A DNA stretch of 64,000 nucleotides from Siphonodentalium dalli (taxonomy: Eukaryota > Mollusca > Scaphopoda > Gadilida > Siphonodentaliidae), in the NCBI GenBank assembly GCA_032622095.1, contig CP136069.1, positions 161,313,043-161,377,042 of the forward strand, given 5' to 3'. The notes beneath the pieces were generated by a model that was not told the DNA's origin, ran no database searches, and was given only the letters and a program-made list of their open reading frames with translations. Shown here one piece after another: positions 29,486-64,000 of this stretch. Positions within the stretch are counted from its first letter, which is position 1; each line of letters opens with the position of its first letter. The position numbers and the translations under genes are program-made.

Positions 29486-32400
29486 GTGAGTGTTGTGGTT
29501 GATATTGTGTGCTGTATATCAGAACTTATTTAATAAATAAAGCATGGCTTGGAGTTGACTACGCTGATGTGATGTCTAGTGGGTGGTCTAGTTCACTGGG
29601 CACTATATCCGCGTAGTCAACGAGAAGACATGCTCTATTTAATCACAGTGGATCAACTGACAGAACCGAAAACCGGAAGTCATGGCAAAGTTTGCAAACA
29701 CTTTCCTACACCTGTTTTGCTGCAGATAAACACACTTAGACACATTTTAATTTAAATGAATATTTCGTCACTGATACTCGCCACAGCTGATCGGTTGAAA
29801 TCAGTTGTCAGCGTTCTATATATCGTGAAAAAAAATGCCTTTGAATCATCGCCGCGGTACGATTTCTTCCGCAAAATATCCCCGAAAATGTATGTTGTAA
29901 CTAATTTTCAGCCACATTTAGTCACAACCATTATACTAATCGAAAGACATCTCCTCCTTCCACAAATGCATGTATTGAGTATTGTCATAGCGTGTCTTCG
30001 TATTCCAAATTTACTATTTTTATACCAGTACCCGCTTAAAAATTACTGTCATGTTAGTCCTGTACATCCCGATATTTAGTCGTGATCGACCAGGCCCGGC
30101 GGACAGTTATTGTTGTTCAACCCAGAGTCGAACTAGATTGGTTGGTTGCCTTTCGTCAACATTGACACGTTTTTGGCCTACTGATTCTTGTTTCAACGTG
30201 TATACCGTATGCATGCACATTTGTTGTCATAATATTCCTTCAGGCTCATTAAGGTCATTAATTAAAGGAAGTCAATGCTGAACAGTTCTGAAATGCTACA
30301 ATGTCCTCCCCATTGGATGGGGTGGAGATATATTTTAATAGTTTGATAGTATGATATATTTCTACCAGTATTTAGTGTGGAATTTTATACTTGTAAAAAA
30401 CATTTAAATTCAAATAATTTGGTACTTTCAGCAGGGGTTGAGCGGGGGGAATATATTCCGGACACATAGGTAATTTTTTCCATCCCAGTGTTCTACTCTT
30501 TGTAAGTGTATATTTTAATACATGTTTTCGGGTAGTCCTAAACACCACTTTATTTTTATTCCGAAAATGTATTACTCATGCTTCTAGACACTATAGCTGA
30601 TACATACATCGAGCCATCCAATGTACAGATGTTTATTTCCATTTCTACTTCTTGTCGATATATATACACGAGTAGGATCTGTCTGTCTACCTGTCTTCTC
30701 CCAGACCCTGCACCATTTTCAAATTTGGTGTGATGATTCGTGGTACCCCGATTAATGTTATCACGGCGTTAGTATTTTTCTCTCAAAATTTTGATTAAGA
30801 TGAACGTTGAAACAAAAAATTGTCTTTTTTAAAATTGAGCAAGAAGTTCAATCTATACAAACTCAATTACAAATTAAATTTAAAATAAAAAGAAATTAAA
30901 ATTATTTGTTTTTTAAATCAAAACGTTTAAATAAAAGATCAAAATGTGCGATTATGGACATCATGGTATGTTGCAGTCAACAGTATTGAGAACTAAATGG
31001 TGTAATACATGCACAGCGGAAGAATAGTGGTGCATTCTATGACTCCATTCGTTTGGAGGGTTCAATATTAGATTTTGAAGCCAAAGAGCTACACGTACTA
31101 TGCTATGTAAATTGTTTTTAATCTTTCATATTACGTTATGAGACAAATATGCTAACTTCTTTTGGCGTAAAAGTCTTGAGTAAAAGATCTGTTTAGCTGA
31201 GTAAAAAACCTCGTGCCGCGGCTGATGGAGCACTGGCCTATGCGTATGTGAACATAATGACCCCGACAGCCTTCAGTGTCACATTTTGAAATGAAAAGGT
31301 AATCATTTGGAAATTTCCAACCATATGGCGGTGTTAGGTTGGAACATTTCAACAGTTTTAACGATTAATGTAGTCGTTGAAAAATTCCGACCTGGGGTGG
31401 GTATAAATGGAATTTCGAAGCTGGTCATTGTCCCTATATTGAATATTATGCCACCGAACTCTTTATAGAGTACATGGACAGCAAATCCAAATACGAATAT
31501 GAAGTCGAGGCCACGAGAAAAAAAGTCGTGGCCACGAGCACAAAGTCGTGGCCACGGGAAAATGAAGTCGTGGCTACGATAATATGAAGTACCCTAACCC
31601 TCAAACTACGTTTCGATGACCCATTAATCAGCCTATTATGACCAAATTGGACAATCTAAACCAATTTGTATGATATATAAGATAGGACACTGCATTCAAT
31701 ATCTGTAAATAACCATTTCCATTTATGTTAGGATTAATACAATTTAAAAGTTAAAATTCGCCCCCCCCCCCCCCGGCCCCAATTTATTTTTATTGGCTCT
31801 CGGAGAGTGATGATACGAGAAAATAATCTTAAATACAACACAGAGGGTCTGTTGTCCAGACTTCACGCGCGTATATACGACACCGATTAGAGGTCATATT
31901 GTCCCTGGAGACCTATACAGAATCCTGGACTCACTAACCATCGTCGCCACGCAAAAATAAAATTAAGAGCCTATAATCTGCGAAATAAGTAGCTTTTTCG
32001 ACAATAAATTGTTGAGGGTATAGCTTTTTGTCGAATCACTAGTTTTAGCGGACATATTTTTGGCGACTAAGTATTTATATTTTCGGGACTAACCGGACAG
32101 TAATTTCGAAAGTGGAAATTTGGAACACTAAGACACTCCGTGACGATATTCAATATATCCATTTGTAGGAGGAGAACAGTTCTTTCGATTGGTATATAGG
32201 TTGTGATGAAAAATGTCTGTTATGATTGTGAACATTTGCATTTTCGGGGATATTTTGCGGAAGAAATCGTCTCGCGGCGTTGATTAAAATGCAGATTTTC
32301 CGCGATAGTACGGTGACAACTTATTTCAACCGATCGTCGGGGCCGAATATCAGTGACGAACCACTTACCTTAAACTGTTTAGAAGCTGTGTCAAAATGTG

Positions 32401-35400
32401 TTTATTTGCAGCAAAAATGGTGTCTGAAAGTGTCTGTAAACTTTGATAACACAAATTCCTCGCCTCGGACTCCATCACTTCCGGTGTTCGGTTCTGTCCG
32501 TTGATACACTATGTTAATATATTTCACCGAACAGTGAAGCATGCAGTGCATGCATACCAAATAACCGTGTCCTACCAACACCTACTTCTGGGCTAATTTA
32601 CTGGACGCTTTTATATATTTCGCTATAGACTAGGGATGAGTTGTAGGTTCCATGCATTACTTGATCCAAAGCCTCCATACACCACACATAAGTAAATAAT
32701 TGGGACGCGAAACTAACAGCGGCTTATGCAAGGAATGCGATGACGTTTCCCGAAACTACGCGTTGTTTGTCCGCGTAAAGAAATAGTCCCTAGATAACTA
32801 AGACTCTATGACGTATTTAATGGCGTAAATTTAATGAAATATATTTTCATACAATATAAATTTTAGTCATAGATACAGATTCTTCTTCATTCATCGTCTC
32901 CCGATTCTGGCTCTATTTCCTGTTATTCGACGACCGTTGCATATCATTATAATGGGTTTAATGAATGGAATAAGGGTAGGATCATGTAATAATGTTTCAC
33001 TTATATAGTCCGTGTATACATTGGAATAAATGTGTTTTAAGGACTAAACTCACGTTTTGTCCACAAAATTGCCTGATATATTTTTTTTTCCTCAAAATCT
33101 GTCTGGAATATCTTTTTTAAATTTGGTTTGATGGGATGTTGTTTCAACATATTTGTTTTTCATACATACGTCTGTGTAATCACGTTTTTATAACTATGAA
33201 ATCACAGGTCAATTCTGAAATATTTCTTATGTTGTGCTCTCTCATTGTGACAACATCTGCATATGACCCAATCAGGAATATGTATATGAAAGCACTGATT
33301 GACTAGAATAAGCAAGTGCATCGGCATTGTTTAATATTCATGTAGATGAGGTCACGAATAAGAGAACAATATAGATCTATTTTAGAATTTCCCTGTGATT
33401 TCGTTGTTAAAACAGATAACGACGGTGTGTTGATTTATATGAGTAAGTAAATTATTAGCAGACACAAAATCACTGACAGCTAGATGTGTTAGTTGAATGT
33501 TGGATCGATTTTTAACACCAATAAGCTGGATGGTGGTGAATGTTAATGAATCATATCGCCATGTTGCTTGAGTTGATCAATTTTGATTTTTGCCCTCTCT
33601 AGTGACAATATTCGGTGGTTAAAATTTGTATTAAATTATATGGATAAAACTCGAAATGGGGCACGCTTGTGGTATTGGTTGAAAGATGAATAATTCGCCG
33701 ACACACCCGTGACGATATCAATACCATTTCTCGGATGAATGGGCTAAATTCGTCCGATTTTCGAGCGATGGTAAAACGTGAAATGTTTATTGTTCCTCTT
33801 GTCCTTATAATAATAATATTAATGCAATGCACTAGTTATGCATTTTTATTGTTCCCCTTGTCCGTATAATAATATTACTGCACTAAATATGCTGCTCGTG
33901 ATGAGGAACTCAACACAGGCGCTTATAAAGAGACGGCGTATATGGGCAGTGCAATGGGGCAGCGGGCGAGTTACAGGCCTATCTGCAGTGGGTGAGATAA
34001 CTGTAGCTATTTTGGTCTTGAGGCTGCCCTCTTGGCTCCATCCAGACAACTTACTCTGTAAAACACAAACATTCCCCATTATCAGGATTGCGTACCTTGT
34101 ATACTGACATTCTTGAGAACGAGCTGACATTGGATGAGCGGTGCTATCAATTTCATATAGATTTTAATGAAATATAGTGAAATAAATGTGATAACAGATT
34201 GCCATGTTGCTTGTTTCGAAATTTAAATAATGTATGTCTGTTTAATTGACAGTATATGTAACTAGTTGAAACCCAGTACAACCGGGTATATTTCATTTCG
34301 AATGGCCACTGTTATACGACAATGTTATGAGATTACAATTTATACGTGAAGAATATTATCGACATTTCCTTTTAATATATCTCTGAGAAATATTAAACTA
34401 ACATAGTATCAACACCAAAAACGGAAACCAGATTAGATGCCATCATACCTTAAGTTAACACAACCATAATGATAATTAGACAGGAAATATACGAACAAAC
34501 AAAGATAATAATCAAGTGTAATCGATATGGTGACGGAAATATGAAAAATATTCACAATTTGTATTAATGTTGCCACCATATTGGCAGCCATTTTGGGATT
34601 TTGTTGGCCATATTATTGACCGAAATAACTTCATTTTTACTTTATCTAATCATTTACATTTATTCTATAAGAATTTCTATTGTTAAATGTCGGCTGCAAA
34701 TTTTTAATCTAAAATGAATATATGATTGGGGAGAAAAAAACATTTCAAACAATTAGGCATCTACGTACGTGTCAAAAGTTTGTACTTTATGCACTAGTTC
34801 CACTCCGATATGGTTAATGGCATACAGCAATTGATTAAAACATACCTAGGTGGTCAAATATTCCGGAAGAAATTATGTTTTTGGTCATTTTTTTTAAATA
34901 ATCGAAAAATCAGGCATTTTGGGCTAGGGGAAACATAATCACATTTCTTCACTAAACTGTTGATAAGTGCCAATTGGGACTTACTGCCTGTTATAGCATA
35001 TCCCTGTTCTCAGCTTATGAATGCAAATGCATATTACTAGGCCTTATAGTTTAGAAGTTGTCGCATATGTGTGCACGAACATTTTAAATGTGTGATATTT
35101 TTCTCCAAAAAATAAGGATTGTCAGACTAAAAGATATTTTTTTTTAAATAAACTTAACTGCTCTTCGTTGGACTTCCTAGTATAGAACATACATTCTACA
35201 ACACAAAAATGATTGAGATATTTCCAAACGTAACATCTAAATATATATATATCGATTATTTTGAGAATTAAAATATTGTTTGGAAAGTTTGAGATAAAAC
35301 AATGACAATTAGGCCGTGGTATCTCTATGCCCCATCAGCTCGTTAATCACCTCTAATGTTCCAATTGTTCTCCGGTGGCACCTACCTCCACCACATTCCG

Positions 35401-38400
35401 GTCTAACCGTGCATGCTGGTAGCAATTCCGTGCGATGATGTTTATATCAGGGACAATGCACACAAAAGTGTTCCACATCTTCAATAGTTCTTCCACGGGT
35501 GCACATGGCGTTATGTTTGTTTTTAAGTTTATCATGATACTAAATGTGTTACAAGAGATTGATGTGACAATGACAATCATCAACTACTAGAAATTATAAC
35601 CCCATTTGCTACACTTTTATGGCATAACAATATATTTAAATGTCGCTATTTTCAGGTACCAAGAACTTCTGAAAAATAAGATATTTAAAAAGTGCAGTTT
35701 ATCCATTATATGATATCTGCAGATCATGAGACGAAACTTAAGTTTTCTTGATTCTTTAGTTGAGAATGACTGTTGGTCGGTGGAAAATATGACTGCGATG
35801 AGTTCTGGATTACAAGTCCATATCCATATCCAAGTTCATCACTATATATCTAAATGTTGTGTCATATTTCCAGTTGCTCCCTGCTCGAGTGAACCGTCTG
35901 TATACCATCATGTGTTTTCATTGAGCGAGTACATGCCGGCGTCTGATTGGGTTTTCAGGACAGCGGTCTCTACCCAACAGACAAAATGTTCGATGAAATC
36001 ATTGCTTTTTTCATAGAACGAACCCGATCTTTTTCTGGTGTTTAACCAGTTGATCTATGAATGAATTATACATATGGCCAATGCGGTAAAGAGAATATAA
36101 ATAATTGATGCCAATTTCCCATCTAAACCAATGTTTTAGAAACGAAGCTAGTTTCTCCATATATCCCACGTGCATTCCCTATTGTCATGCAGGATACGGA
36201 ATCGGAGTACGTATATGAGGACAATCGAGTATAGTGTAAGATAAATTTTCATATGATTTCGTGCTCTATCTAGCTATATATACTGAATATGTGTGCACAT
36301 AAATTGAAACCAGTATTTCAGGCATCAGAGTAGAGGTACAGAACCTGCCAATGACGTGGAATGACGCACAAGCTCATTGTATATCACTGGGTGGCCACCT
36401 TCTCAGATTACATTGCCAATCCATGCATGATACAGTCAAACAACAATTGACTGGTGAGTGCATTAGTAAGATATCGACACAACACCACTGCGTGAATGAT
36501 TATGTTCAACATGCAGTTATACGTTATTTAGTCTGAATGTAGAATCACACATTTTTTTCTCCAAAACATATTACGTCCGTGTCAGCCAACCACAAACTAA
36601 TCGCAAACTAATCGCTGCCGATGTCAATCAGAGATAATTTCCCGGATTTTAATGGGAAACGAATACAATGACGCCATGCCTCGGCAAAAGTCCCATATAG
36701 CGATGGTAATACGAAGGATGTCGGATTATTTCAGTGTATCTAACGCGTAGCTGTACAACCGTGTTAACTCTTCCTTTACTGAATGGATTCTCATATTCTG
36801 ATATCAAAGTATACATTGGACTGGTTTATTATTCATCTGGGGGGATGTTCAGGAAATATAAGCAGACGACGGATAAATAAAGTGCAGAAGGAATCCGATT
36901 TTGTTGAACTTATTATCTGAATATTTCCGAAGTGATGACTACTCGTCAATGAATATTTAGTAAAGAAAGGGTTAACTCAGATTTGAACTTATATTGAGAT
37001 TACATCATCGCAAGCAGCAGTTAAATATATCGCAATGTATGCAGTCTGGACGGATTTAGGTCAATTTGTCATCAAATACTTCGAAATTTGGAAGTCGTAC
37101 TGTAATCGTCGTTGGAGAATTAGAGGCCCCGCACAAGTCAGGAACACAGGTGGGGTCAACATTCTATGAATCGTACGCTGGTTCATTTTGATCAAATAAC
37201 TAACATTATATAATGCGCGAATTGCGGCAATAACTTTTTGGTTTGTATTGTATAAACATAAATGTACATTTGAATAATTTAATTTCATCTCAATTTATAG
37301 ACAGATATACTTAGTGAATGAATATTTAACATTGCTTGCTATGCATTGCTCCACATCCAGAGGATATATGATACACAATAGAAGCGAGATTTTTATAAAA
37401 CATTCATACTTTGAAAAATCTATCTACCGCGCGTCTATCATATACGTGGAACTGATGTGTATCGGATACTATAAGGGCCACTTCCAAATGGCACTGCTGG
37501 CGCGCACCGAAAGCGACAAATCATGCGTCACTAGACGCACACCGAAAGCGACAGAAGAGACAGATGATGACGCATGTTTGGTGCGACGAAATATGCGACA
37601 TTATCAAATGTTTTGCCGCGTGCGGAAAGCGACAGCAGCGACGAAATGTGTGACAAATGTCGGATGTTTTGGCGGTTCTGTCCCTTTCGGTGCGCCACTA
37701 ATGGCGTGTGTTCTGGAATCAGGAAGCTAAATGTGTTCTAGAGTCGGGGAGCGAGTACACCGTGGAATACTAAAGGTGAAGGTAAATGAAGAATGACATT
37801 CACCTGATACATGCGACACGTTATTAAAGGATGACATCGCGTTTATTTGATTTGTACATAATATCTAAATAATTTAAACTGGTGAATGAATGGGGGAATG
37901 AATTTTTGTGAGCGGGAAATTTATTTAACTAGCTGCTGTAGCTCTGGGTGTTTCCAGATCAAATTTGGCTGTGAGATAGCCCTGTCGTAGACTTGGGTAT
38001 TTATTTTAAAAAGTAAACACATGACCTATGATTTGTCTTGCATTTTCGTGATCAACTGGTGTCAATCTAGCTGGGTAAACATCACTGGTATGGCCTGCAG
38101 GCTTCAATTCAGTTAATTTGGCCGAAACGTTAACACTGTCGCCTATGGGAAACCATTTAGTTCAGTGATTCCTTCTGTCGCTTTCTTTGCCATTAGGATA
38201 GTATTCCATAGATGTTTCTGTGTGGCCGACAGTTTGCACCACTCATCACTGTTGGGTATTTTCCAGGTGCCCCAGTCGCATCGTACTGGGTTGATTTGTC
38301 TGATGAGGTTCAAGAAGGAAATTGGATCTTCAGCGACGGATCATGCCCGACCTATCTGCCTTGGTATCCGGGCGAGCCAAATGGAGACATCTCACAAAAC

Positions 38401-38487
38401 TGTGTGAGGGTTTATCAAACTTACTCTTGGGATATCAGCGACAGGCAGTGTACCGACTTGAATGGAGTCATCTGCCAATTTGACTAA
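29233..38487 (+). CDS. Secreted PAN/apple + C-type lectin protein (spliced)
   Basis: Three exons join in frame through phase-1 introns (29,233-29,485; 36,322-36,453; 38,267-38,487) to give 201 residues. The order is a signal peptide (MKFHACFLIWYLQSSLAA), a PAN/apple-like domain with six cysteines, and a C-type lectin domain. The CRD has TWNDAQAHCISLGGHL, a WIGL-like YWVDLSD, the EPN motif that in known lectins favours mannose/GlcNAc, and four conserved cysteines (AHC, QNC, RQC, VICQ). The WND motif is altered to WDI, so sugar binding is uncertain. The CRD lacks the extra N-terminal cysteine pair of long-form CRDs. Such proteins are thought to act in invertebrate recognition of carbohydrates or microbes. 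The gene spans the left end of the giant palindrome. Confidence 0.75.
29645..30085. repeat. Left half of a diverged inverted repeat pair
   Basis: GATCAACTGACAGAACCG and AAACCGGAAGTCATGG through AAAATATCCCCGAAAATG and ATTTAGTCGTGATCG match, in reverse complement, the segment 32,050-32,505. Identity is perhaps three quarters by eye, over about 440 bases. The outermost words GTGGATCAACTGACAGAACC and GGTTCTGTCCGTTGATACAC are mirror images, as in a 2.86-kb element with long TIRs. Confidence 0.55.
31501..31582. repeat. Four copies of GTCGTGGCCACGA word
   Basis: The 13-base near-palindrome GTCGTGGCCACGA (one copy GTCGAGGCCACGA, one GTCGTGGCTACGA) recurs about every 20-22 bases, separated by A-rich linkers. 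It is repeated in the right arm at about 62,993-63,074. Confidence 0.7.
32050..32505. repeat. Right half of the diverged inverted repeat pair
   Basis: Partner of 29,645-30,085. It contains GGGGATATTTTGCGGAAGAA, GCAGATTTTCCGCGATAG and CACTTCCGGTGTTCGGTTCT. It is also mirrored in the right palindrome arm (about 62,070-62,525). The open frame across it is not conserved between the two halves, so it is not a gene. Confidence 0.55.
35874..36016 (+). CDS. Candidate alternative exon of PAN-CLECT gene
   Basis: CATATTTCCAG at 35,863-35,873 is a good acceptor. Joined to exon 1 in phase 1, it reads VAPCSSEPSVYHHVFSLSEY onward for about 47 codons to TAG at 36,014-36,016. This would make a short PAN-only isoform. 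The right arm keeps the same frame and stop, but near-identity of the arms makes this weak support. I recognise no domain in the tail, and the exon is not needed for the main reading. Confidence 0.25.
36322..36453 (+). CDS. PAN-CLECT exon 2: first half of lectin domain
   Basis: Acceptor GTATTTCAG and donor TG|GTGAGT bound 132 bases encoding IRVEVQNLPMTWNDAQAHCI and on to DTVKQQLTG. This is the first alpha-helical half of the CRD, including the cysteine that pairs with the final one. Both junctions are phase 1. Confidence 0.8.
36454..38266 (+). other. Second intron of the PAN-CLECT gene
   Basis: No coding signal. It contains the 436-base segment (37,228-37,663) that is absent from the right arm, and a hairpin-like element (about 37,497-37,700) with GCACCGAAAGCGACA words in both orientations. 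Confidence 0.5.
37228..37663. repeat. Left-arm-only 436-base segment
   Basis: CGG stands at 37,225-37,227 and again at 37,661-37,663. The right arm has a single CCG at 57,379-57,381 and lacks everything between. The segment holds the left half of a hairpin whose right half is present in both arms. A deletion from the right arm at the 3-base CGG homology is therefore more likely than an insertion here. Confidence 0.75.
38267..38487 (+). CDS. PAN-CLECT exon 3: second half of lectin domain
   Basis: Acceptor TATTTTCCAG, then 73 codons from APVASYWVDLSDEVQEGNW to VICQFD and TAA. It contains the WIGL-like, WYPGEPNGD (EPN) and WDISDRQC motifs, covering the calcium and sugar-binding loops and three of the four CRD cysteines. 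The protein ends six residues after the CRD core (no membrane anchor), so it is secreted. Confidence 0.85.
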
Positions 38488-38754
38488 ACAGTATGTGCTG
38501 TGGGAATATGACTGGGAGATCTAAATGGCCATGAGCCATGCATGTATTTGCAATTATCTGTGTGTCACCGCATAATCATATCATAACAGACTGCAGGAAT
38601 ATATTATCATGGTGTATTGCACACTACCGATCTATATTGGGATGGCTGAATATTACTCCTGGAGCATCTGTCAATATGACAGCATACTCAGTTTTACACC
38701 CAGGATTTGCACATGACATCTGTAAAATGATATATATACCATCGTGAGGAAGTG

Positions 38755-38760
38755 AATAAA
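38755..38760 (+). terminator. Candidate poly(A) signal AATAAA
   Basis: AATAAA lies 268 bases after the lectin stop codon, in GAAGTGAATAAAAATCC. The mirror position in the right arm (56,282-56,287) reads AATAAC on the minus strand. Confidence 0.45.
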
Positions 38761-39059
38761 AATCCTACTGTTGACTATTTCCCACAAACACCACTCAACG
38801 TTTCTCTCCCTCGATAAGACCGCTGGCACCGGCGACAATTTACCCACATTGTGAATGATATTTTATCCCTCAATGACAATACAATCATTGCCAGACGCGG
38901 CTATCGCCAAATCGACTTCCCGAGACCGATAACTGAACAGCGCTAAGTGTTTTGGTTTAATTTTGCACGATACACATGGCCGTATCACGTGAAGTCATAT
39001 GCAGAGAACAGCTATATTTACATTGGTTCATTACGATATACTAATGCGAAGGCATGCCA

Positions 39060-42000
39060 CACTGTCGGATACCCGTTTAGGTTCGGACATTCCAAGATGG
39101 CGGCGCCCACTAAAGCAGATAAACGGTAAGTGTATATATTGTCTCCAAGCAGCAATCAACGACATCTTTCGGTGATATACCTTGAACCAGTTATGTAGGA
39201 ATGTGTATGCCCAACACATACGTAACACGCCTTTCGCATGACAGGCATGTGAATTGTTGTATTTGGCGTGTCAAGTCGTCATAATTTTTCGAAATTTTAT
39301 CGAGGCGGCGAAATGTCCGCTTTTTAGTATTTGTTTGGCCCTGGGCTCATGCATCCGCAAATTTATGTATTGTTGTGGGTAGATTAGGTCACCACACATC
39401 TTCGGAATGCAAAACCGGCGATATTTTTATTGTCTAACTCCGAAAAATGACCTTTGAAAATTTCAAAATGTTCAGGTTCGGATTCGCAACATTCGCGATG
39501 ATATTGTTCAGGTTCAGACACAATTTTCGTTCAGGTTCGGACAAATTTGGTTCAGGTTCGGACGCATCAAAAACTTCGCATAAAAATGACACGCCGAGGT
39601 GCAGTCGCGTTCTTATTGCGTTTTTGTGCATTTGGTTATCTTCCATTCGTAACAGAAACGATAAATGGGGAACACGAGGCGTGGTTTTAACCCACTCGTG
39701 AATTTGGGCGGACTTTCTTATTTAATGCGTGTGAGATGTATGCGATAACGTATTCCCCTCCACATCCACATACGATGCCACGAAGGTCGCCGCATGTAGA
39801 TGAGCAGATAACGGTCCATAATATAAGTTACACGGTTTTTTGAGGGGGAAACTGTGCGGTATGCCCCGGTAGAGGCTCGTATCCCCCGAGGCGATCCCCC
39901 ATCAACAAGCCGTGTAACGATGTATTTACCCCCAGTCTCTATTAACAATATATTCCCAGACATAAAGCTCAGAAACGAGCCACGAACAGTAACTCTATTT
40001 TGTTAGCCTGCTTATATATACGATGAATGTGATTACTCTCGGGGTCCAAATGAGCATACGGTGCGGAATAAGAGTACAGGGTGGACAATTCTGCTAAATC
40101 CAATAAGAGTACGGGGCAGAATAACAGTACAGGGTGGAAATTTCCAACATGGAAGCAAGTCCATCTGAAATGATTAAAATCGTAAGTGGGGAAAATCGTA
40201 GGTGGAGAAATCGTAGCTTGCCCGCATACGCTACGATGCTGCGATGTTTGCAGCTACGATTTTATCAACGTGATCGATCACATGATAGCAAAATGTTATA
40301 CCCCATTCTCCGCATTATGCAACTAAATACATATGGCATGTATCTCTGTGTTGTAAACTAACAAGTTGATGTTGAAAGTTCAAGTGAAATTGAATATTTT
40401 TTTAATTTTGACATTTTTGTACCTGTCAACTCAACATGCTCAGCTGCTCCAATTGAATTTCAACAATTGCGGCAGCCCTCTACTCCTTGCCTAATATGTG
40501 GTATATGCCTGCACTCCCTGTCGTGCCACATCTCCACCGATGTGGCCTCGTTTTTGTAAGTGCAAGCAGTTTGTAAACTTTGCGCCATTTTTGAATGTTT
40601 TCTTTTCATGGTATTTACAACATGACCAGTGCGACAGTGGTCATGTGACAGCTACGATCGCGCGCGTTGCCAAGGTCACGCCACGATTGTCCTGGTAAAA
40701 TCAAACAGTACTTGATTGCTACGATATCGCTACGATATTGTCGTGGCCATGCGCATTAGATGCTTCCTCCTGCGATTTTCCCCACTTACGATTTTAATCG
40801 CAGCGTGTGCGGTGGCACTTATAATGTCAATCATATATATTTATAAAATTTTGCACTGTTTGTTGTCATAGGAGTTACCAAACAGACTTCCGGCAACATG
40901 TTTGGACTATCTGTTCCTTATCTGAATGAAGGCTCCAGCAATTCTGATAGGCATGTATATAGTATAACTTTCTTGACAATCCCGCTATATAAATAAACAT
41001 ACGGACCCAAATAAGCACCATACAGGGCGGCAACTTTTCCAAAAATTAATAAGCATACGGGTATGCTTATTTGGATCCCAAGAGTATATAGCTGTTCCCA
41101 CAATTTGCCCATAAATACTTGCTGGCCTCGCTAACTTTAAAACAAATATATGTTAGTGGTTATAAAATGGGGCAATATATTTCACAAAAATAATGACAAA
41201 TAAGTCGGACATCCTGAGTAAATGAGGCATGAATAACACGGTAACCAGCACACCAGAAATTAACTTGGCTTTGCATGATGTACTTTCGGACGTTCAATTT
41301 GTGTGGCCTAATTTCACTTTCACAAGGGCGTAAGAGATTGTTTTTACCCTTGTATATAGCGACGACATTTTGTGCAGGTTAATACCATATAATTGTTTCC
41401 TGTTTAGTTAACATAATTATGTCGAACAAGAACACCGGGATACTTACAATTCTAGATTACGATCAATTTCAGCTGAAATATTTAGATATAACAAATTAAC
41501 AATGCATGTTCGTTAATCACACGCACAATAAGATCGCGACTGCACCTCGGCATGCCATTTATAGGTAAGGTTTTGATGCGTCCGAACCTGAACTAAAATT
41601 GTCCGAACCTGAACCATATTTGTCCGAACCTGAACGAAAATTGTGTCTGAACCTGAACAAAATCATCGCGAATGTTGCGAATCCGAACCTGAACATTTTG
41701 AAATTGTCAAAGGTCGTTTTTCGGAGTTAGACAATAAAAATATCGCCGGTTTTGCATTCCGAAGATGTGTGGTGACCTAATCTACCCACAACAATACATA
41801 AATTTGCGGATGCATGAGCCCAGGGCCCAAAACAAATACTAAAAAGCGGACATTTCGCCGCCTCGATAAATTTCGAAAAATTATGACGACTTGACACGCC
41901 AAATGCAACAATTCACATGCCTGTCATGCGAAAGGTGTGTTACGTATGTGTTGGGCATACAAATTCCTACATAACTGGTTCAAGGTATATCACCGAAAGA

Positions 42001-45470: not shown

Positions 45471-45482
45471 TAAACAGAAAGC

Positions 45483-52609: not shown

Positions 52610-55330
52610 GCTTTCTGTTTATGGTGGCTTAAACGGATGTGACTGTTCTAACATGAATAACCATCGCGTGGGCCATCGATATTTTTAAGCACTGACGCGA
52701 CATCCTCCCCTCCTCATTAGTTTTGAAGCGTGGTATTTTTGTGCCCGCGACGTAGGAATTTGTTATCTCTGGCGCGAAATATTTGTTATTAAAATACATT
52801 GTATTATGTATGTATGCTGAACATATCCTGCTGCACTTCCGAGCAAACCGAACTGGTAACAATTTAAAGTTGTTTAATTAAGAAATAAATACATATAATT
52901 AGTTAATTTTAGACCAAACAGAAGAAAGTGGGCTCGAATAGACCCAGCTATCACAGCTTGTACTTGGGCCCATGTTATTGGATGCTATGTACATTAACGT
53001 CAATTATCAATTGAGCGTAAGTTTTCTTGAGCTCAAATTGTTACTTGGTACCAAGTTGTCAATCGGATATCAATATTCGTTGCCCCTTTCTACTTGGGCC
53101 TGTGTTATTTAACCCCAATGTATCCTATATGAATACATCACCAATTGGCGCAGACTAAATATCAAAGGCGTCTTTCTATTTTTTGTTTCTTTTCGCGTGT
53201 GTACAAGACAGTAATGAATCCGGGGTTCCTCGGTGTTATTTTCGTACAAACACTGAGTGACAGCGAAAATTTTATCTTCATTGTATTATATCCCTTTTCC
53301 TCTGTAGTTAAAATATAAAGACAAAGGTTGATGACAACGGGCCCATTTGTGGTTATAACTTGTATTTATGAATTTGTAGTTGTTTAGGAGGTAACATTTA
53401 AGAAGTTATATTTGTCTTAAATTGTTGCCGCCAATTAGCCTTAATTTCCCCTCAGAAAGTATGTTAAGAGGTAATATTGGCTTTTAATTGGCCTTAGTTT
53501 TGACTTGGTTGAGACGTAGGTGGTAGGAATAAGTGATAGCTATTAATTGTGTCAATTTTCCACATTTCATATTAGTTGTGTTCCGTTGAGTGACTAGATA
53601 GATTAACGTTCTCTCCCAATTGGCCGATGTCTTGTCAAAACATCCGCAGAATGTCTTATAGATGTATTTGTACTGTAGCATTAATATTAATTACCATTAC
53701 ATCATTTAGGTATTTTGTCATGGGTTATCGTGAGATCGATAAGTCTCAAATTATATAATTGAAAGTGTTATTGATTTCTTGGTTTATAACGTCTTGATAT
53801 TCCTTAAGGATATAGGTTGGAGTTTTCGGTTATATTTCGGTGAGGTGTCTATTATTTTACATGTCTGATGTTTCAAGAATAGTTATGTTGTATTTGTTTG
53901 CATTCAACTGTGTTTGTTACTCAATGGTTACTCAAGTCAAATGGTATCATTTTGCAACAAAGATGTATTGGTAGCAAATGACCAGGAAATTAAAGGCATT
54001 AAAGAATTATACTCCAATTATGTGAGAATAAATGTTTATTCCCCGATGGTTGTGTTTAAAACTTTGAGTTTCTAATTGCTCTGAAAAACAATTATACATG
54101 ATTCAGATAGGCAACACAGGGTCACTCATTAATGAGCTGGTCCAAAATGGTGCCGCAAACACAAAAAAAACTCTCCATTATGGCTACATTATCTTGAGGA
54201 TATTGACTCAAATGTAAGGTTTGCTCAGACGTAACGACTCCATTGTGTAACGAGCATGTATTGGTGACAGACGACACTATCCGGTCCAAAAACAAAATGT
54301 TTAGCAAATTTGTTGATATATTTTGTGGGAAATAAATGTTTTTTTATCAGATAGTTGAAAATTAGCATTTGATTGCTACTCAGGTAAATTAAACAATGTC
54401 AAGTTGTTATGCCCAAAGCTTGTTTATGGTAAAATTTTGTTGTTAAACAAAAGTTGTTTAAAGAGAGCAAGGTTGGTTTATAGTTTTGCTTGGAACATTA
54501 TATGGCAAATTTACGAAGCTGCTGTTGTGCTCAAACAGTTCGATTTTACGGTCAAGTATTTAAAAATTAGAGAAAAATAGCATTTTCACTATCTAAGTAA
54601 CTTGTTAATAACAAAAATAATCACTGTATTCCTCTATTATTAAGAAGACAAAAATATTCTGACACAATGTGTGTTCCGTTGTATAGAGTTAGCCAAATGT
54701 TCCTGTGATGAATTGAGGTCATGTAACTCAATAAATTAATATATGCCCTGCTTTTCTCGTAGACTTTTACGCATGTTAGATTAATCGGTTTGGGAAAATT
54801 TACTCTCATATATACGATGAGAAATCGGTATTCTTACAAGTGTGTGTGGCTTCGCTGGTGTCCGTGTCTGTCTCTTATAATGAATTCGCTTTGGTGTGAA
54901 GACATTTCTGATTTTTTTTCTCGCAGTGATCGGCGATCAGTTGAGTCATCACAAATATTGTCCGCGTTGGAAGTTTATTTATTCCAGTTAACAGGTTGTG
55001 ATGTGTAAATTCATTATATACAGTACTACGATTCCGAGGAATCGGCTTCCACACTTGAAGCTATTTTCATTCACGTTTCGCCATTCCCGGGCGGTGATTC
55101 GTGATTATTTATTATATTCCACGCATAATCATGACATTTTTGTGTGAAGACGTGTAAGATCGATGTTGTTGATACACCAGTAAACCAGAATTGGATTATT
55201 TGTATATAACTCTGTCAACTATTACAATGAAAACACATTAATCCGCAGATGACTATTCAAAGAATCTCAGTGAAGACAGAGGGATTTTACATTTATTCTA
55301 TGAAAGGAAAAAAAGAGCAAAGATTACATC

Positions 55331-55806
55331 GGCATATCAACTGAACTCATGAAAGAGACTATCTTCATACTAGCCCCAGCACTTAAGTATATATTTAATA
55401 TTTCGTTTGAACAGGGAATAGTTCCAATTAACATGAAAATCTCTAAAGTAGTCCCCATTCCCAAAATAAACAACGCCAAGGAAATAACACACTATCGTCC
55501 AATCAGTACCCTTCCATCGGCTCACAAACATATAAACAGTTTTTGTAAAAAATGCCCTGAACATTTTGTCTTAGATTATGTGTTATATATATACGATTAG
55601 TCTGTACGTGTACATGGATATGAATATGAATAATACTCACGCTATCTGATAAATTATTTGTATAGTGATATTTGTTTTGTGGGAAACAGGAAGACAGCCC
55701 GGTAGGGCTATGTCCCCCCAGCAATATACTGAATTATTATCTAGTTATATGATAATTTATTGTACTATTCATATGTGTATTGTAAATAAAATTATCCTAT
55801 CCTAAC
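55331..55806 (+). pseudogene. Non-LTR retrotransposon fragment, mirror copy
   Basis: Right-arm counterpart of 42,285-42,760 with the same RT start and the same internal deletion. It differs by a few substitutions (HYRPISTLPS here, HYRPISILPL on the left). Confidence 0.6.
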
Positions 55807-56554
55807 CTTGCGACAAATTTGCGTGAAATTATTTTCCAAATTCATTAGTATACCAGGCCTGAGATGAACTATTGTAGCTCTGACAGGGAATATTATAAGT
55901 CAGATAATTTAAAACACATCACAAATTAGAAAGATTGAGAAAATTGGAAGGTCATAATACCAGCATTTAAAGAACACACTGGCAACATGCCTTCGCATTA
56001 GTATATCGTAATGAACCAATGTAAATATAGGTGTTCTCTGCATATGACTTCACGTAATACGGCCATGTGTATCGTGCAAAATTAAACCAAAACACTTAGC
56101 GCTGTTCAGTTATCGGTCTCGGGAAGTCGATTTGGCGATAGCCGCGTCTGGCAATGATTGTATTGTCATTGAGGGATAAAATATCATTCACAATGTGGGT
56201 AACTTGTCGCCGGTGCCAGCGGTCTTATCGAGGGAGAGAAACGTTGAGTGGTGTTTGTGGGAAATAGTCAACAGTAGGATTGTTATTCACTTCCTCACGA
56301 TGGTATATATATCATTCTACAGATGTCATGTGCAAATCCTGGGTGTAAAACTGAGTATGCTGTCATATTGACAGATGCTCCAGGAGTAATATTCAGCCAT
56401 CCCAATATAGATCGGTAGTGTGCAATACACCATGATAATATATTCCTGCAGTCTGTTATGATATGATTATGCGGTGACACACAGATAATTGCAAATACAT
56501 GCATGGCTCATGGCCATTTAGATCTCCCAGTCATATTCCCACAGCACATACTGT

Positions 56555-56775
56555 TTAGTCAAATTGGCAGATGACTCCATTCAAGTCGGTACACTGCCTG
56601 TCGCTGATATCCCAAGAGTAAGTTTGATAAACCCTCACACAGTTTTGTGAGATGTCTCCATTTGGCTCGCCCGGATACCAAGGCAGATAGGTCGGGCATG
56701 ATCCGTCGCTGAAGATCCAATTTCCTTCTTGAACCTCATCAGACAAATCAACCCAGTACGATGCGACTGGGGCAC
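56555..56775 (-). pseudogene. Right-arm lectin copy, exon 3
   Basis: Minus-strand mirror of 38,267-38,487. It has the same acceptor, EPN motif and stop, and the translated exon is identical. On its own it is intact, but the exon before it is frameshifted, and the AATAAA after it reads AATAAC (56,282-56,287). Confidence 0.8.
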
Positions 56776-58159
56776 CTGGAAAATACCCAACAGTGATGAG
56801 TGGTGCAAACTGTCGGCCACACAGAAACATCTATGGAATACTATCCTAATGGCAAAGAAAGCGACAGAAGGAATCACTGAACTAAATGGTTTCCCATAGG
56901 CGACAGTGTTAACGTTTCGGCCAAATTCACTGAATTGAAGCCTGCAGGCCATACCAGTGATGTTTACCCAGCTAGATTGACACCAGTTGATCACGAAAAT
57001 GCAAGACAAATCATAGGTCATGTGTTTACTTTTTAAAATAAATACCCAAGTCTACGACAGGGCTATCTCACAGCCAAATTTGATCTGGAAACACCCAGAG
57101 CTACAGCAGCTAGTTAAATAAATTTCTCGCTCACAAAAATTCATTCCCCCATTCATTCACCAGTTTAAATTATTTAGATATTATGTACAAATCAAATAAA
57201 CGCGATGTCATCCTTTAATAACGTGTCGCATGTATCAGGTGAATGTCATTCTTCATTTACCTTCACCTTTAGTATTCCACGGTGTACTCTCTCCCCGACT
57301 CTAGAACACATTTAGCTTCCTGATTCCAGAACACACGCCATTAGTGGCGCACCGAAAGGGACAGAACCGCCAAAACATCCGCAATTCGCGCATTATATAA
57401 TGTTAGTTATTTGATCAAAATGAACCAGCGTACGATTCATAGAATGTTGACCCCACCTGTGTTCCTGACTTGTGCGGGGCCTCTAATTCTCCAACGACGA
57501 TTACAGTACGACTTCCAAATTTCGAAGTATTTGATGACAAATTGACCTAAATCCGTCCAGACTGCATACATTGCGATATATTTAACTGCTGCTTGCGATG
57601 ATGTAATCTCAATATAAGTTCAAATCTGAGTTAACCCTTTCTTTACTAAATATTCATTGACGAGTAGTCATCACTTCGGAAATATTCAGATAATAAGTTC
57701 AACAAAATCAGATTCCTTCTGCACTTTATTTATCCGTCGTCTGCTTATATTTCCTGAACATCCCCCAGATGAATAATAAACCAGTCCAATGTATACTTTT
57801 ATATCAGAATATCAGAATATGAGAATCCATTCAGTAAAGGAAGAGTTAACACGGTTGTACAGCTACGCGTTAGATACACTGAAATAATCCGACATCCTTC
57901 GTATTACCATCGCTATATGGGACTTTTGCCGAGGCATGGCGTCATTGTATTCGTTTCCCATTAAAATCCGGGAAATTATCTCTGATTGACATCGGCAGCG
58001 ATTAGTTTGCGATTAGTTTGTGGTTGGCTGACACGGACGTAATATGTTTTGGAGAAAACAATGTGTGATTCTACATTCAGACTAAATAACGTATAACTGC
58101 ATGTTGAACATAATCATTCACGCAATGGTGTTGTGTCGATATCTTACTAATGCACTCAC

Positions 58160-58290
58160 CAGTCAATTGTTGTTTGACTGTATCATGCTGGATTGGCAAT
58201 GTAATCTGAGAAGGTGGCCACCCAGTGATATACAATGAGCTTGTGCGTCATTCCACGTCATTGGCAGGTTCTGTACCTCTACTCTGATGC
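58160..58290 (-). pseudogene. Right-arm lectin copy, exon 2, frameshifted
   Basis: Minus-strand mirror of 36,322-36,453, but 131 instead of 132 bases. Where the left arm reads CAATCCATGCATGATAC, this arm reads CAATCCAGCATGATAC. The missing base shifts the frame after HCQS and brings a TGA within about ten codons. Splice sites are conserved. The matching exon 1 would lie past the right edge, near 65,090-65,345 by extrapolation. Confidence 0.8.
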
Positions 58291-58595
58291 CTGAAATAAT
58301 GGTTTCAATTTATGTGCACACATATTCAGTATATATAGCTAGATAGAGCACGAAATCATATGAAAATTTATCTTACACTATACTCGATTGTCCTCATATA
58401 CGTACTCCGATTCCGTATCCTGCATGACAATAGGGAATGCACGTGGGATATATGGAGAAACTAGCTTCGTTTCTAAAACATTGGTTTAGATGGGAAATTG
58501 GCATCAATTATTTATATTCTCTTTACCGCATTGGCCATATGTATAATTCATTCATAGATCAACTGGTTAAACACCAGAAAAAGATCGGGTTCGTT

Positions 58596-58738
58596 CTATG
58601 AAAAAAGCAATGATTTCATCGAACATTTTGTCTGTTGGGTAGAGACCGCTGTCCTGAAAACCCAATCAGACGCCGGCATGTACTCGCTCAATGAAAACAC
58701 ATGATGGTATACAGACGGTTCACTCGAGCAGGGAGCAA
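58596..58738 (-). pseudogene. Mirror of candidate alternative exon
   Basis: Same acceptor, frame and stop as 35,874-36,016. Listed for completeness; its use as an exon is unproven in either arm. Confidence 0.25.
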
Positions 58739-61700
58739 CTGGAAATATGACACAACATTTAGATATATAGTGATGAACTTGGATATGGATATGGACTTGT
58801 AATCCAGAACTCATCGCAGTCATATTTTCCACCGATCAACAGTCATTCTCAACTAAAGAATCAAGAAAACTTAAGTTTCGTCTCATGATCTGCAGATATC
58901 ATATAATGGATAAACTGCACTTTTTAAATATCTTATTTTTCAGAAGTTCTTGGTACCTGAAAATAGCGACATTTAAATATATTGTTATGCCATAAAAGTG
59001 TAGCAAATGGGGTTATAATTTCTAGTAGTTGATGATTGTCATTGTCACATCAATCTCTTGTAACACATTTAGTATCATGATAAACTTAAAAACAAACATA
59101 ACGCCATGTGCACCCGTGGAAGAACTATTGAAGATGTGGAACACTTTTGTGTGCATTGTCCCTGATATAAACATCATCGCACGGAATTGCTACCAGCATG
59201 CACGGTTAGACCGGAATGTGGTGGAGGTAGGTGCCACCGGAGAACAATTGGAACATTAGAGGTGATTAACGAGCTGATGGGGCATAGAGATACCACGGTC
59301 TAATTGTCATTGTTTTATCTCAAACTTTCCAAACAATATTTTAATTCTCAAAATAATCGATATATATATATTTAGATGTTACGTTTGGAAATATCTCAAT
59401 CATTTTTGTGTTGTAGAATGTATGTTCTATACTAGGAAGTCTGACCATCCTTATTTTTAGGAGAAAAATATCACACATTTAAAATGTTCGTGCACACATA
59501 TGCGACAACTTCTAAACTATAAGGCCTAGTAATATGCATTTGCATTCATAAGCTGACAACAGGGATATGCTATAACAGGCAGTAAGTCCCAATTGGCACT
59601 TATCAACAGTTTAGTGAAGAAAAGTGATTATGTTTCCCCTAGCCCAAATTTTTCGATTATTTAATAAAAATGACCAAAAACATAATTTCTTCCGGAATAT
59701 TTGACCACCTAGGTATGTTTTTATCAATTGCTGTATGCCATTAACCATATCGGAGTGGAACTAGTGCATAAAGTACAAACTTTTGACACGTACGTAGATG
59801 CCTAATTGTTTGAAATGTTTTAATTTTTAAAGTTTTTTTCTCCCCAATCATATATTCATTTTAGATTAAAAATTTGCAGCCGACATTTAACAATAGAAAT
59901 TCTTATAGAATAAATGTAAATTATTAGATAAAGTAAAAATGAAGTTATTTCGGTCAATAATATGGCCAACAAAATCCCAAAATGGCTGCCAATATGGTGG
60001 CAACATTAATACAAATTGTGAATATTTTTCATATTTCCGTCACCATATCGATTACACTTGATTATTATCTTTGTTTGTTCGTATATTTCCTGTCTAATTA
60101 TCATTATGGTTGTGTTAACTTAAGGTATGATGGCATCTAATCTGGTTTCCGTTTTTGGTGTTGATACTATGTTAGTTTAATATTTCTCAGAGATATATTA
60201 AAAGGAAATGTCGATAATATTCTTCACGTATAAATTGTAATCTCATAACATTGTCGTATAACAGTGGCCATTCGAAATGAAATATACCCGGTTGTACTGG
60301 GTTTCAACTAGTTACATATACTGTCAATTAAACAGACAGACATTATTTAAATTTCGAAACAAGCAACATGGCAATCTGTTATCACATTTATTTCACTATA
60401 TTTCATTAAAATCTATATGAAATTGATAGCACCGCTCATCCAATGTCAGCTCGTTCTGAAGCATGTCAGTATACATGGTACGCAATCCTGAGAATGGGGA
60501 ATGTTTGTGTTTTACAGAGTAAGTTGTCTGGATGGAGCCAAGAGGGCAGCCTCAAGACCAAAATAGCTACAGTTATCTCACCCACTGCAGATAGGCCTGT
60601 AACTCGCCCGCTGCCCCATTGCACTGCCCATATACGCCGTCTCTTTATAAGCGCCTGTGTTGAGTTCCTCGTCACGAGCAGCATATTTAGTGCAGTAATA
60701 TTATTATACGGACAAGGGGAACAATAAAAATGCATAACTAGTGCATTGCATTAATATTATTATTATAAGGACAAGAGGAACAATAAACATTTCACGTTTT
60801 ACCATCGCTCGAAAATCGGACGAATTTAGCCCATTCATCCGAGAAATGGTATTGATATCGTCACGGGTGTGTCGGCGAATTATTCATCTTTCAACCAATA
60901 CCACAAGCGTGCCCCATTTAGATTTTTATCCATATAATTTAATACAAATTTTAACCACCGAATATTGTCACTAGAGAGCGCAAAAATCAAAATTGATCAG
61001 CTCAAGCAACATGGCGATATGATTCATTAACATTCACCACCATCCAGCTTATCGGTGTTAAAAATCGATCCAACATTCAACTAACACATCTAGCTGTCAG
61101 TGATTTTGTGTCTGCTAATAATTTACTTACTCATATAAATCAACACACCGTCGTTATCTGTTTTTAACAACGAAATCACAGGGAAATTCTAAAATAGATC
61201 TATATTGTTCTCTTATTCGTGACCTCATCTACATGAATATTAAACAATGCCGATGCACTTGCTTATTCTAGTCAATCAGTGCTTTCATATACATATTCCT
61301 GATTGGGTCATATGCAGATGTTGTCACAATGAGAGAGCACAACATAAGAAATATTTCAGAATTGACCTGTGATTTCATAGTTATACAAACGTGATTACAC
61401 AGACGTATGTATGAAAAAAAAATATGTTGAAACAACATCCCATCAAACCAAATTTAAAAAAGATATTCCAGACAGATTTTGAGAAAACAAAATTAAATAT
61501 CAGGCAATTTTGTGGACAAAACGTGAGTTTAGTCCTTAAAACACATTTATTCCAATGTATACACGGACTATATAAGTGAAACATTATTACATGATCCTAC
61601 CCTTATTCCATTCATTAAGCCCATTATAATGATATGCAACGGTCGTCGAATAACAGGAAATAGAGCCAGAATCGGGAGACGATGAATGAAGAAGAATCTG

Positions 61701-64000
61701 TATCTATGACTAAAATTTATATTGTATGAAAATATATTTCATTAAATTTACGCCATTAAATACGTCATAGAGTCTTAGTTATCTAGGGACTATTTCTTTA
61801 CGCGGACAAACAACGCGTAGTTTCGGGAAACGTCATCGCATTCCTTGCATAAGCCGCTGTTAGTTTCGCGTCCCAATTATTTACTTATGTGTGGTGTATG
61901 GAGGCTTTCGATCAAGTAATGCATGGAACCTACAACTCATCCCTAGTCTATAGCGAAATATATAAAAGCGTCCAGTAAATTAGCCCAGAAGTAGGTGTTG
62001 GTAGGACACGGTTATTTGGTATGCATGCACTGCATGCTTCACTGTTCGGTGAAATATATTAACATAGTGTATCAACGGACAGAACCGAACACCGGAAGTG
62101 ATGGAGTCCGAGGCGAGGAATTTGTGTTATCAAAGTTTGCAGACACTTTCAGACACCATTTTTGCTGCAAATAAACACATTTTGACACAGCTTCTAAACA
62201 GTTTAAGGTAAGTGGTTCTTGACTGATATTCGGCCCCGACGATCGGTTGAAATAAGTTGTCACCGTACTATCGCGGAAAATCTGCATTTTAATCATCGCC
62301 GCGAGACGATTTCTTCCGCAAAATATCCCCGAAAATGCAAATGTTCACAATCATAACAGACATTTTTCATCACAACCTATATACCAATCGAAAGAACTGT
62401 TCTCCTCCTACAAATGGATATATTGAATATCGTCACGGAGTGTCTTAGTGTTCCAAATTTCCACTTTCGAAATTACTGTCCGGTTAGTCCCGAAAATATA
62501 AATACTTAGTCGCCAAAAATATGTCCGCTAAAAGTAGTGATTCGACAAAAAGCTATACCCTCAACAATTTATTGTCGAAAAAGCTACTTATTTCGCAGAT
62601 TATAGGCTCTTAATTTTATTTTTGCGTGGCGACGATGGTTAGTGAGTCCATGATTATGTATAGGTCTCCAGGGACAATATGACCTCTAATCGGTGTCGTA
62701 TATACGCGCGTGAAGTCTGGACAACAGACCCTCTGTGTTGTATTTAAGATTATTTTCTCGTATCATCACTCTCCGAAAGCCAATAAAAATAAATTGGGGC
62801 CGGGGGGGGGGGGGCGAATTTTAACTTTTAAATTGTATTAATCCTAACATAAATGGAAATGGTTATTTACAGATATTGAATGCAGTGTCCTATCTTATAT
62901 ATCATACAAATTGGTTTAGATTGTCCAATTTGGTCATAATAGGCTGATTAATGGGTCATCGAAACGTAGTTTGAGGGTTAGGGTACTTCATATTATCGTA
63001 GCCACGACTTCATTTTCCCGTGGCCACGACTTTGTGCTCGTGGCCACGACTTTTTTTCTCGTGGCCTCGACTTCATATTCGTATTTGGATTTGCTGTCCA
63101 TGTACTCTATAAAGAGTTCGGTGGCATAATATTCAATATAGGGACAATGACCAGCTTTGAAATTCCATTTATACCCACCCCAGGTCGGAATTTTTCAACG
63201 GCTACATTAATCGTTAAAACTGTTGAAATGTTCCAACCTAACACCGCCATATGGTTGGAAATTTCCAAATGATTACCTTTTCATTTCAAAATGTGACACT
63301 GAAGGCTGTCGGGGTCATTATGTTCACATACGCATAGGCCAGTGCTCCATCAGCCGCGGCACAAGGTTTTTTACTCAGCTAAACAGATCTTTTACTCAAG
63401 ACTTTTACGCCAAAAGAAGTTAGCATATTTGTCTCATAACGTAATATGAAAGATTAAAAACAATTTACATAGCATAGTACGTGTAGCTCTTTGGCATCAA
63501 AATCTAATATTGAACCCTCCAAACGAATGGAGTCATAGAATGCACCACTATTCTTCCGCTGTGCATGTATTACACCATTTAGTTCTCAATATTGTTGACT
63601 GCAACATACCATGATGTCCATAATCGCACATTTTGATCTTTTATTTAAACGTTTTGATTTAAAAAACAAATAATTTTAATTTCTTTTTATTTTAAATTTA
63701 ATTTGTAATTGTGTTTGTATAGATTGAACTTCTTGCTCAATTTAAAAAAAGACAATTTTTTGTTTCAACGTTCATCTTAATCAAAATTTTGAGAGAAAAA
63801 TACTAACGCCGTGATAACATTAATCGGGGGTACCACGAATCATCACACCAAATTTGAAAATGGTGCAGGGTCTGGGAGAAGACAGGTAGACAGACAGATC
63901 CTACTCGTGTATATATATCGACAAGAAGTAGAAATGGAAATAAACATCTGTACATTGGATGGCTCGATGTATGTATCAGCTATAGTGTCTAGAAGCATGA

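What the first reader, a model, noticed from the sequence alone, without database searches (positions are those of the whole stretch)
30575..64000. Giant near-perfect palindrome with no spacer, over 33 kb
Half the window is one inverted repeat centred at 49,046, with arms of at least 18.5 kb (left) and 15 kb (right, cut by the window). Pair sums stay constant over kilobases, so this is one event and not scattered repeats. Spacer-free palindromes of this size are unstable in most genomes. If real, it is a striking structure comparable in form to Y-chromosome palindromes or amplification fold-backs. If not, it is an assembly fold-back that joined two haplotypes or used a palindromic long read. 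The sequence alone does not decide.
Basis: partly seen in the sequence, partly recalled or inferred. Interest (0 to 1): 0.88.

Follow-up and report, generated by a model that had tools for sequence, protein, structure and literature searches.

The report
Young lectin-gene palindrome, identical centre
An animal chromosome carries a stretch of about 18-21 kb next to its own mirror image, with what looks like one lectin-type gene in each half; it is most likely a genuine, fairly recent inverted duplication whose central 8.6 kb has become perfectly identical, which is a known kind of structure rather than a new one.

Summary
The inverted repeat is present. It spans 27,886-66,682 (2.7 kb past the window), centred at 49,046, with a 15-nt spacer rather than none. 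It is not uniform: the innermost 4,295 bp per arm are identical, while the outer 13.2 kb differ by 0.79% plus indels, with a sharp step between.

A haplotype fold-back is unlikely. There is no N in 324 kb, and the longest inverted flank-to-flank match is 745 bp. The right arm has 3 extra bases where the left arm holds a 3.05-kb TIR transposon, and an older paralogue has the clean empty site. The centre is the head-to-head end of a dispersed repeat found in this arrangement at 27 other loci; the three sampled have diverged arms.

Each arm carries a PAN exon and a C-type-lectin exon, probably one gene, facing the centre.

Best reading: a young inverted segmental duplication whose core was recently homogenised, by arm-to-arm conversion or fold-back copying. 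An assembly or consensus error confined to the 8.6-kb core is not excluded; reads must decide. The kind is known: large gene-bearing palindromes.

The parts
27886..49038 (-). Left arm of the inverted repeat (27,886 is a (GT)n/(CA)n tract)
49054..64000 (+). Right arm, as far as the window reaches; it continues to window coordinate 66,682 (L009:2682)
49039..49053 (.). 15-nt asymmetric spacer in an (AT)n tract with GAG on the left side only
44744..53348 (.). Perfect core: 4,295 columns per side, 0 substitutions, 0 indels
46542..49038 (+). Left copy of the dispersed repeat 'E' (tandem core units of 49, 131, 122 and 56 bp; AT-rich end at the centre). The head-to-head partner is 49,054-51,550 on the other strand. 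The outer limit is my reading of the tandem repeats
39057..42105 (.). 3.05-kb element with about 505-bp terminal inverted repeats (98.0% alike), flanked by ATGCCA on both sides, present in the left arm only; it contains a 650-bp dispersed repeat at about 40,172-40,821
55983..55990 (.). Corresponding site of the right arm, with 3 extra bases compared with the clean empty site in the older paralogue: read as an excision footprint
37228..37660 (.). About 434 bp in the left arm only; part of it (bases 17-177) is present at 77% in the older paralogue, so probably a deletion in the right arm
29212..29499 (+). PAN-domain exon, left arm (PAN_1, E = 1.2e-8); partner at 65,082-65,369 minus, outside the window (L009:1082-1369)
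38212..38484 (+). C-type lectin exon, left arm (Lectin_C, E = 2.9e-8)
56558..56830 (-). C-type lectin exon, right arm; 100% identical over 273 nt to the left copy
26631..27876 (-). a': inverted copy of the first 1,246 bp of segment A, at the outer end of the left arm; it also pairs with 71,920-73,165
12605..19018 (+). Segment A; direct copy at 71,920-78,520 beyond the right arm (99.57% over 5,610 and 99.88% over 810 columns)

Best explanation
This is a natural inverted segmental duplication on C9 of a nuclear animal genome, in a neighbourhood of PAN/C-type-lectin paralogues. A segment of about 15 kb of locus-specific sequence plus one copy of a dispersed repeat (E) was duplicated in inverted orientation, so that two E copies sit head to head at the centre (SHOWN: structure). 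The most likely way is priming from a folded-back AT-rich end of E, or template switching between nearby inverted E ends during repair or replication (INFERRED). The arms then diverged to about 0.8% by substitutions, small indels and loss of a TIR transposon from the right arm (SHOWN as differences; the order is INFERRED from an outgroup paralogue). More recently the innermost 4.3 kb of the two arms became identical again. The likely process is arm-to-arm gene conversion, or a second fold-back copying that ended within the arm (INFERRED). It probably serves no function as a palindrome; its product is a second copy of a probable secreted PAN-lectin gene, tail to tail with the first.
For: Outer arms differ by 104 of 13,234 columns and the core by 0 of 4,295. 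No N in 324 kb; flanks not inverted homologues, longest inverted match 745 bp. Left arm keeps a TIR element with ATGCCA on both sides; the right arm has 3 extra bases at that site; the older paralogue has the clean empty site. The element's two ends differ by 2.0% (7 mismatches), more than the arms differ, as expected if it inserted before the duplication. Of 104 outer differences 34 could be polarised: 19 on the left, 9 on the right, 6 neither, so changes arose in both arms. The centre is the junction type seen at 27 other loci; 3 of 27 were sampled and have arms 90.6, 91.9 and 95.4% alike. Best other E copy listed is 91% alike, so the two identical E copies here are one copy duplicated. PAN and lectin exons are intact in both arms. 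Older paralogues lie in the same region.
Against: No reads, coverage or Hi-C could be examined, and the assembly method is unknown. A perfect core of 8.6 kb with abrupt ends is also what one palindromic read, or a consensus collapse, would leave. The 19:9 split of polarised changes is somewhat uneven (p about 0.09 by my own binomial arithmetic). The 3 extra bases could be an unrelated small insertion. The neighbouring segment A copies are younger (about 0.4%) than a' is from both, so the locus history has more steps than this account explains.
Confidence: 0.62

Rival explanations
1. The inverted repeat is real, but its core is an artefact: the true centre has a spacer or slightly different E copies, and the assembler bridged it with a fold-back read or gave both inner arms one consensus. 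The 0.8% outer divergence is genuine, the perfect 8.6 kb is not.
For: The identity steps sharply from 0 of 4,295 to 20 of 2,634 columns at 44,743/53,349, and even microsatellites and tandem arrays in the core are identical. Fold-back reads are documented in ONT and PacBio data and are recognised by a breakpoint near the read's midpoint (PMC12870357: abstract and 12 passages). 8.6 kb is a plausible read length (recalled).
Against: The turning point lies exactly at the end of a repeat family that also occurs head to head elsewhere with diverged arms; a random fold-back would rarely hit it. The 15-nt centre is asymmetric.
Confidence: 0.25
2. The core was made not by gene conversion between existing arms but by a second, recent fold-back: a broken end in one arm snapped back at the AT-rich end of E, copied about 4.3 kb of its own arm and then joined the other arm, removing the original centre.
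For: The left side reads CTTCAAAATATATAT-GAG-(AT)n and the right side lacks the matching CTC, as expected if an (AT)n end paired upstream of GAG. 8 of the 28 head-to-head loci, this one included, have GAG or CTC on one side only (my count of the list). Fold-back priming at inverted repeats near breaks is established in yeast (PMC10622511, abstract).
Against: Ordinary conversion explains the core equally well; 12 of the 28 loci have the full end on both sides, so adjacency of two elements is also common (my count).
Confidence: 0.25
3. Assembly fold-back that joined two haplotypes head to head.
For: 0.8% is a usual level of heterozygosity in invertebrates (recalled), and a transposon present in one copy only fits two alleles.
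Against: Inverted homology stops at 26,631 and 73,165; beyond it the flanks share no inverted match over 745 bp. No N in 324 kb. One arm followed by unrelated unique sequence on each side is not what a folded haplotype gives.
Confidence: 0.07

Closest known systems
Large gene-bearing palindromes kept alike by arm-to-arm gene conversion (mammalian X and Y; willow W/sex region)
   Same: Long inverted arms with genes, arms above 98% alike, tiny spacer, signs of recent homogenisation. The >99% identity of mammalian X palindromes is stated in the abstract of PMC8981503 (search listing); PMC7023750 and PMC6790999 seen in listings only.
   Different: Nothing shows that C9 is a sex chromosome. Homogenisation is limited to the inner 4.3 kb per arm, and conversion is inferred from one assembly, with no population or sister-species data.
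Long inverted repeats with paralogous gene pairs in Caenorhabditis
   Same: Convergent paralogues around a nearly perfect inverted repeat with a short spacer; one locus there has 2,207-bp arms, a 126-bp spacer and 99.7% identity (PMC1803023, abstract and Discussion).
   Different: Here arms are about 18-21 kb with a 15-nt spacer, and no relatives could be compared to show maintenance.
Fold-back (snap-back) inverted duplications at short inverted repeats
   Same: Junction in a short quasi-palindrome, here AT-rich, with a few unpaired bases at the turn (PMC10622511, abstract).
   Different: Those are fresh rearrangements in yeast or tumours ending in dicentrics; this is an interstitial, inherited-looking duplication with flanks on both sides.
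Fold-back artefacts of long reads
   Same: Mirror-image sequence around one point (PMC12870357, abstract and passages).
   Different: Outer arms differ by 0.79% and carry a transposon difference.

Membership tests
Large gene-converting palindrome | Inverted arms of several kb or more with very high identity | tested here: met
   Arms of 21.2 and 17.6 kb; core 100%, outer blocks 99.0-99.7% in gap-free columns
Large gene-converting palindrome | Genes within the arms | tested here: met
   PAN_1 and Lectin_C exons in each arm; one joint gene is inferred, no transcript was seen
Large gene-converting palindrome | Gene conversion between arms | tested here: inconclusive
   0 of 4,295 against 104 of 13,234 differences fits conversion, but also fold-back copying or an artefact of the core
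Large gene-converting palindrome | Location on a sex chromosome (frequent, not required) | not testable with these tools
   Species and sex chromosomes of G000 are unknown
Fold-back inverted duplication at a short inverted repeat | Short inverted repeat or quasi-palindrome at the turn, with a short loop | tested here: met
   15-nt spacer in (AT)n with GAG on one side
Fold-back inverted duplication at a short inverted repeat | The duplicated sequence was single-copy before and one E end was alone | not testable with these tools
   No relative or second haplotype is held
Long-read fold-back artefact | Whole mirror image identical apart from read errors | tested here: not met
   104 substitutions, 15 indel events and a 3.05-kb element outside the core
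Long-read fold-back artefact | No independent read support across the turning point | not testable with these tools
   No reads available
Joined haplotypes | Inverted homology continues between the two flanks | tested here: not met
   Longest inverted flank match 745 bp within the flanks held, 156.6 kb left of the arm and 127 kb right

The most novel reading that the evidence does not exclude
The AT-rich end of repeat family E is a recurrent fold-back primer: it makes head-to-head dimers of itself (28 loci by the pattern used, 8 of them with the one-sided GAG of a snap-back) and now and then mirrors many kilobases of neighbouring DNA, so that a transposon end seeds gene-scale palindromes and duplicates immune-type lectin genes.
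Probability: 0.15. Interest if true: 0.6.

Novelty: new member of a known kind. Interest (0 to 1): 0.36.

Why it matters
If real, it is a near-spacerless palindrome in an invertebrate-like genome caught at a useful age: arms about 0.8% apart with a perfectly matched centre. Such a locus would let one measure how conversion or fold-back copying starts from the centre of a palindrome, and it ties palindrome birth to the end of a dispersed repeat. If the core is an artefact, it is a clear example of how one 8.6-kb stretch can look like gene conversion in an assembly.

Tried and rejected
Species: a paper with 2.23 Gb and nine chromosomes (scorpion Hadrurus arizonensis, PMC11126328; abstract and Results read) was considered. 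It reports a scaffold N50 of 280 Mb; from the contig lengths I get 264.3 Mb for G000, so it does not fit. The Chitin_bind_4 search found 0 matches in G000, but it also rang in 0 of 14 controls, so it says nothing firm. The searches named no other candidate. The species stays unknown.

One ancient convergent pair kept alike by conversion: rejected for this pair's origin. PAN exons also form convergent pairs at C9:160.76/160.82 Mb and C3:188.996/189.040 Mb, but there left matches left (94.5%) and right matches right (96.7%) across the two loci, while left and right within a locus are 82.8% and 81.6% alike; the palindrome's two exons are 99.5% alike. So those are an old pair copied as a block and not homogenised over this exon.

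Gradual decay from the centre outwards: rejected; the change is a step. The last two 1-kb bins and the final 7 columns (245, 583 and 6 differences) were dropped because they lie past the arm ends, where unrelated sequence was forced together.

Chance pairing of E ends: with 3,873 and 3,860 full 22-base ends and uniform placement I expect about 0.1-0.2 head-to-head pairs this close (own arithmetic); 12 of the 28 loci have the full end on both sides. Clustering of ends (for example C1:13.76-13.79 Mb) makes uniform placement a weak null.

tRNA and Rfam scans of the window: 0 genes, 0 matches. Weak Pfam hits to DUF3384 and Orthopox_A36R are below their cut-offs and were ignored. Outputs are partial (first 60 rows shown, or cut in the middle); two searches listed only matches over the stated length and identity.

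Full report
Observation. The window is G000:C9:161,313,043-161,377,042 of a 2.227-Gb, 9-contig genome. A self-comparison shows the inverted repeat. Together with flanks of 130 kb on each side (324 kb, 0 N) its limits are 27,886 and 66,682, both in (GT)n tracts. Perfect arms meet at 49,038 and 49,054, leaving 15 nt.

Two layers of identity. Blockwise alignment gives 4,295 columns with 0 substitutions and 0 indels for 44,744-49,038 against 49,054-53,348. The four outer blocks give 20 of 2,634, 8 of 1,396, 7 of 2,055 and 69 of 7,149 substitutions, in all 104 of 13,234 (0.79%), with 15 indel events (Fisher p = 3e-13). The first differences outside the central AT tract come at 44,743, 44,622, 44,564, 44,554 and 44,549, so the change is abrupt.

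History written in the arms. The left arm has a 3.05-kb element at 39,057-42,105 with about 505-bp inverted ends (98.0% alike) and ATGCCA on both sides; the right arm reads GGCATGTTGCCAGTG in the same orientation. An older, about 78-84% paralogue (window coordinates about -64.7 to -38 kb) has the site without the element and without the 3 extra bases. The simplest reading is insertion before the duplication and later excision from the right arm with a footprint. A left-only 434-bp stretch is partly present in the paralogue (77% over bases 17-177), so the right arm probably lost it. Of the 104 outer differences, 34 could be polarised with the paralogue: 19 changed on the left, 9 on the right, 6 undecided. 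Both arms thus have histories of their own.

Flanks. Between the left and right flanks the longest inverted match is 745 bp at 96.8%; the 25 longest rows were looked at. The longest direct matches are segment A, 12,605-19,018 against 71,920-78,520 (99.57% over 5,610 and 99.88% over 810 columns). The first 1,246 bp of A recur inverted at the outer end of the left arm (26,631-27,876). Among 19 variable columns of the three copies, the inverted one is the odd one out in 13, left A in 3, right A in 3. So the two direct copies are closer to each other than to the inverted one, and the locus was rearranged or converted more than once. Left A runs on into what reads like LINE endonuclease coding sequence, where right A breaks off (my reading, no family search). 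I could not order these steps with confidence.

The centre. The sequence at the turn is the AT-rich end of a dispersed repeat, here called E. Its 22-base end occurs 3,873 times on one strand and 3,860 on the other. The head-to-head arrangement within 30 bases occurs at 28 loci, this one included; the control read backwards gave 0. By my count of that list, 12 have the full end on both sides, 8 (this one included) have GAG or CTC on one side only, and 8 are other variants. Of the 27 others I obtained about 1 kb around 3; their arms are 90.6, 91.9 and 95.4% alike. They are thus diverged head-to-head pairs, so the arrangement is natural in this genome. Whether their arms go beyond E is unknown. 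The best other copy of E listed is 91% alike over 33-674 of the query (40 candidates scored), whereas the two copies here are identical, so they are one copy duplicated.

Genes. Each arm has a PAN exon (left 29,212-29,499 plus; right 65,082-65,369 minus; PAN_1 E about 1e-8; 1 residue different in 89) and a C-type lectin exon (38,212-38,484 plus; 56,558-56,830 minus; Lectin_C E = 2.9e-8; nucleotide-identical). Both face the centre. A donor-like CAG/GTGAGT follows the PAN domain and a TTTTCCAG acceptor-like site precedes the lectin part; my reading is that they belong to one gene with at least one more exon between them. Further PAN-exon relatives lie on C9, C3 and C1; 123 matches at E <= 0.001 were listed with 150 of 317 candidates scored. 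Two lectin-exon relatives left of the window, at about -26.3 and -56.2 kb, carry stops. So this is a PAN/lectin neighbourhood with older duplications; the two arms are its youngest pair seen here (99.5% against at most 85.9% with any of the six other exons compared).

Mechanism. Shown: structure, two identity layers, transposon difference, head-to-head E centre, gene content. Inferred: (a) birth by fold-back or template switching at the E end; (b) later homogenisation of the core by conversion or a second fold-back; (c) no special function of the palindrome. The yeast fold-back pathway (PMC10622511, abstract) and conversion in palindromes (PMC8981503, abstract start in listings; PMC1803023, abstract and Discussion) are the models.

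Artefact. Against a wholesale artefact stand the outer divergence, the transposon footprint, the unlike flanks and the natural type of junction. An artefact of the core alone cannot be ruled out: fold-back reads occur on both long-read platforms (PMC12870357, abstract and 12 passages), 8.6 kb is a possible read length, and no reads are held. I put about 0.25 on that.

Novelty. Long gene-bearing palindromes with young or converted arms are known. I ran two literature searches for parallels and one for PAN/lectin genes in inverted arrangement (one unrelated paper); the papers named from 38 and 61 other than PMC1803023 were seen in listings only. I file it as a new member of a known kind; the seed role of the E end is the bold reading.

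Noticed in passing
L011:505-7814 and L011:9948 to L012:6387 (window coordinates about 84,505-91,814 and 93,948-100,387): An older, decayed inverted repeat (80, 88 and 86% in three aligned pieces from inside outwards) with a spacer of about 2.1 kb, 18 kb to the right of the palindrome; it holds similar open frames of 153 and 162 codons in its two arms.
   Followed up: partly
window 12,845-15,818: A 3-kb dispersed element with inverted ends and a DUF3504/phage-integrase-like open frame (13,930-14,949; E = 3e-13 and 9.4e-7). The query stretch recurs at 36 other places at 95-97% (39 candidates scored).
   Followed up: partly
G000 C9:160,758,268+/160,816,173- and C3:188,996,228+/189,039,759-: Two more convergent pairs of the PAN exon, 58 and 43.5 kb apart, which look like an old pair copied as a block between chromosomes and not homogenised over that exon.
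   Followed up: partly
G000 C1:13.76-13.79 Mb: At least a dozen E ends in the same orientation within about 30 kb, a tandem-like cluster.
   Followed up: no
window 24,058-25,562: Array of about 29 copies of a 54-bp unit, about 68% matches.
   Followed up: no
L009:2683-7875 (window coordinates 66,683-71,875): 5.2-kb segment in the right side only, between (GT)n tracts, with pieces similar to sequence at about 145-149.5 kb; no long inverted ends found.
   Followed up: partly
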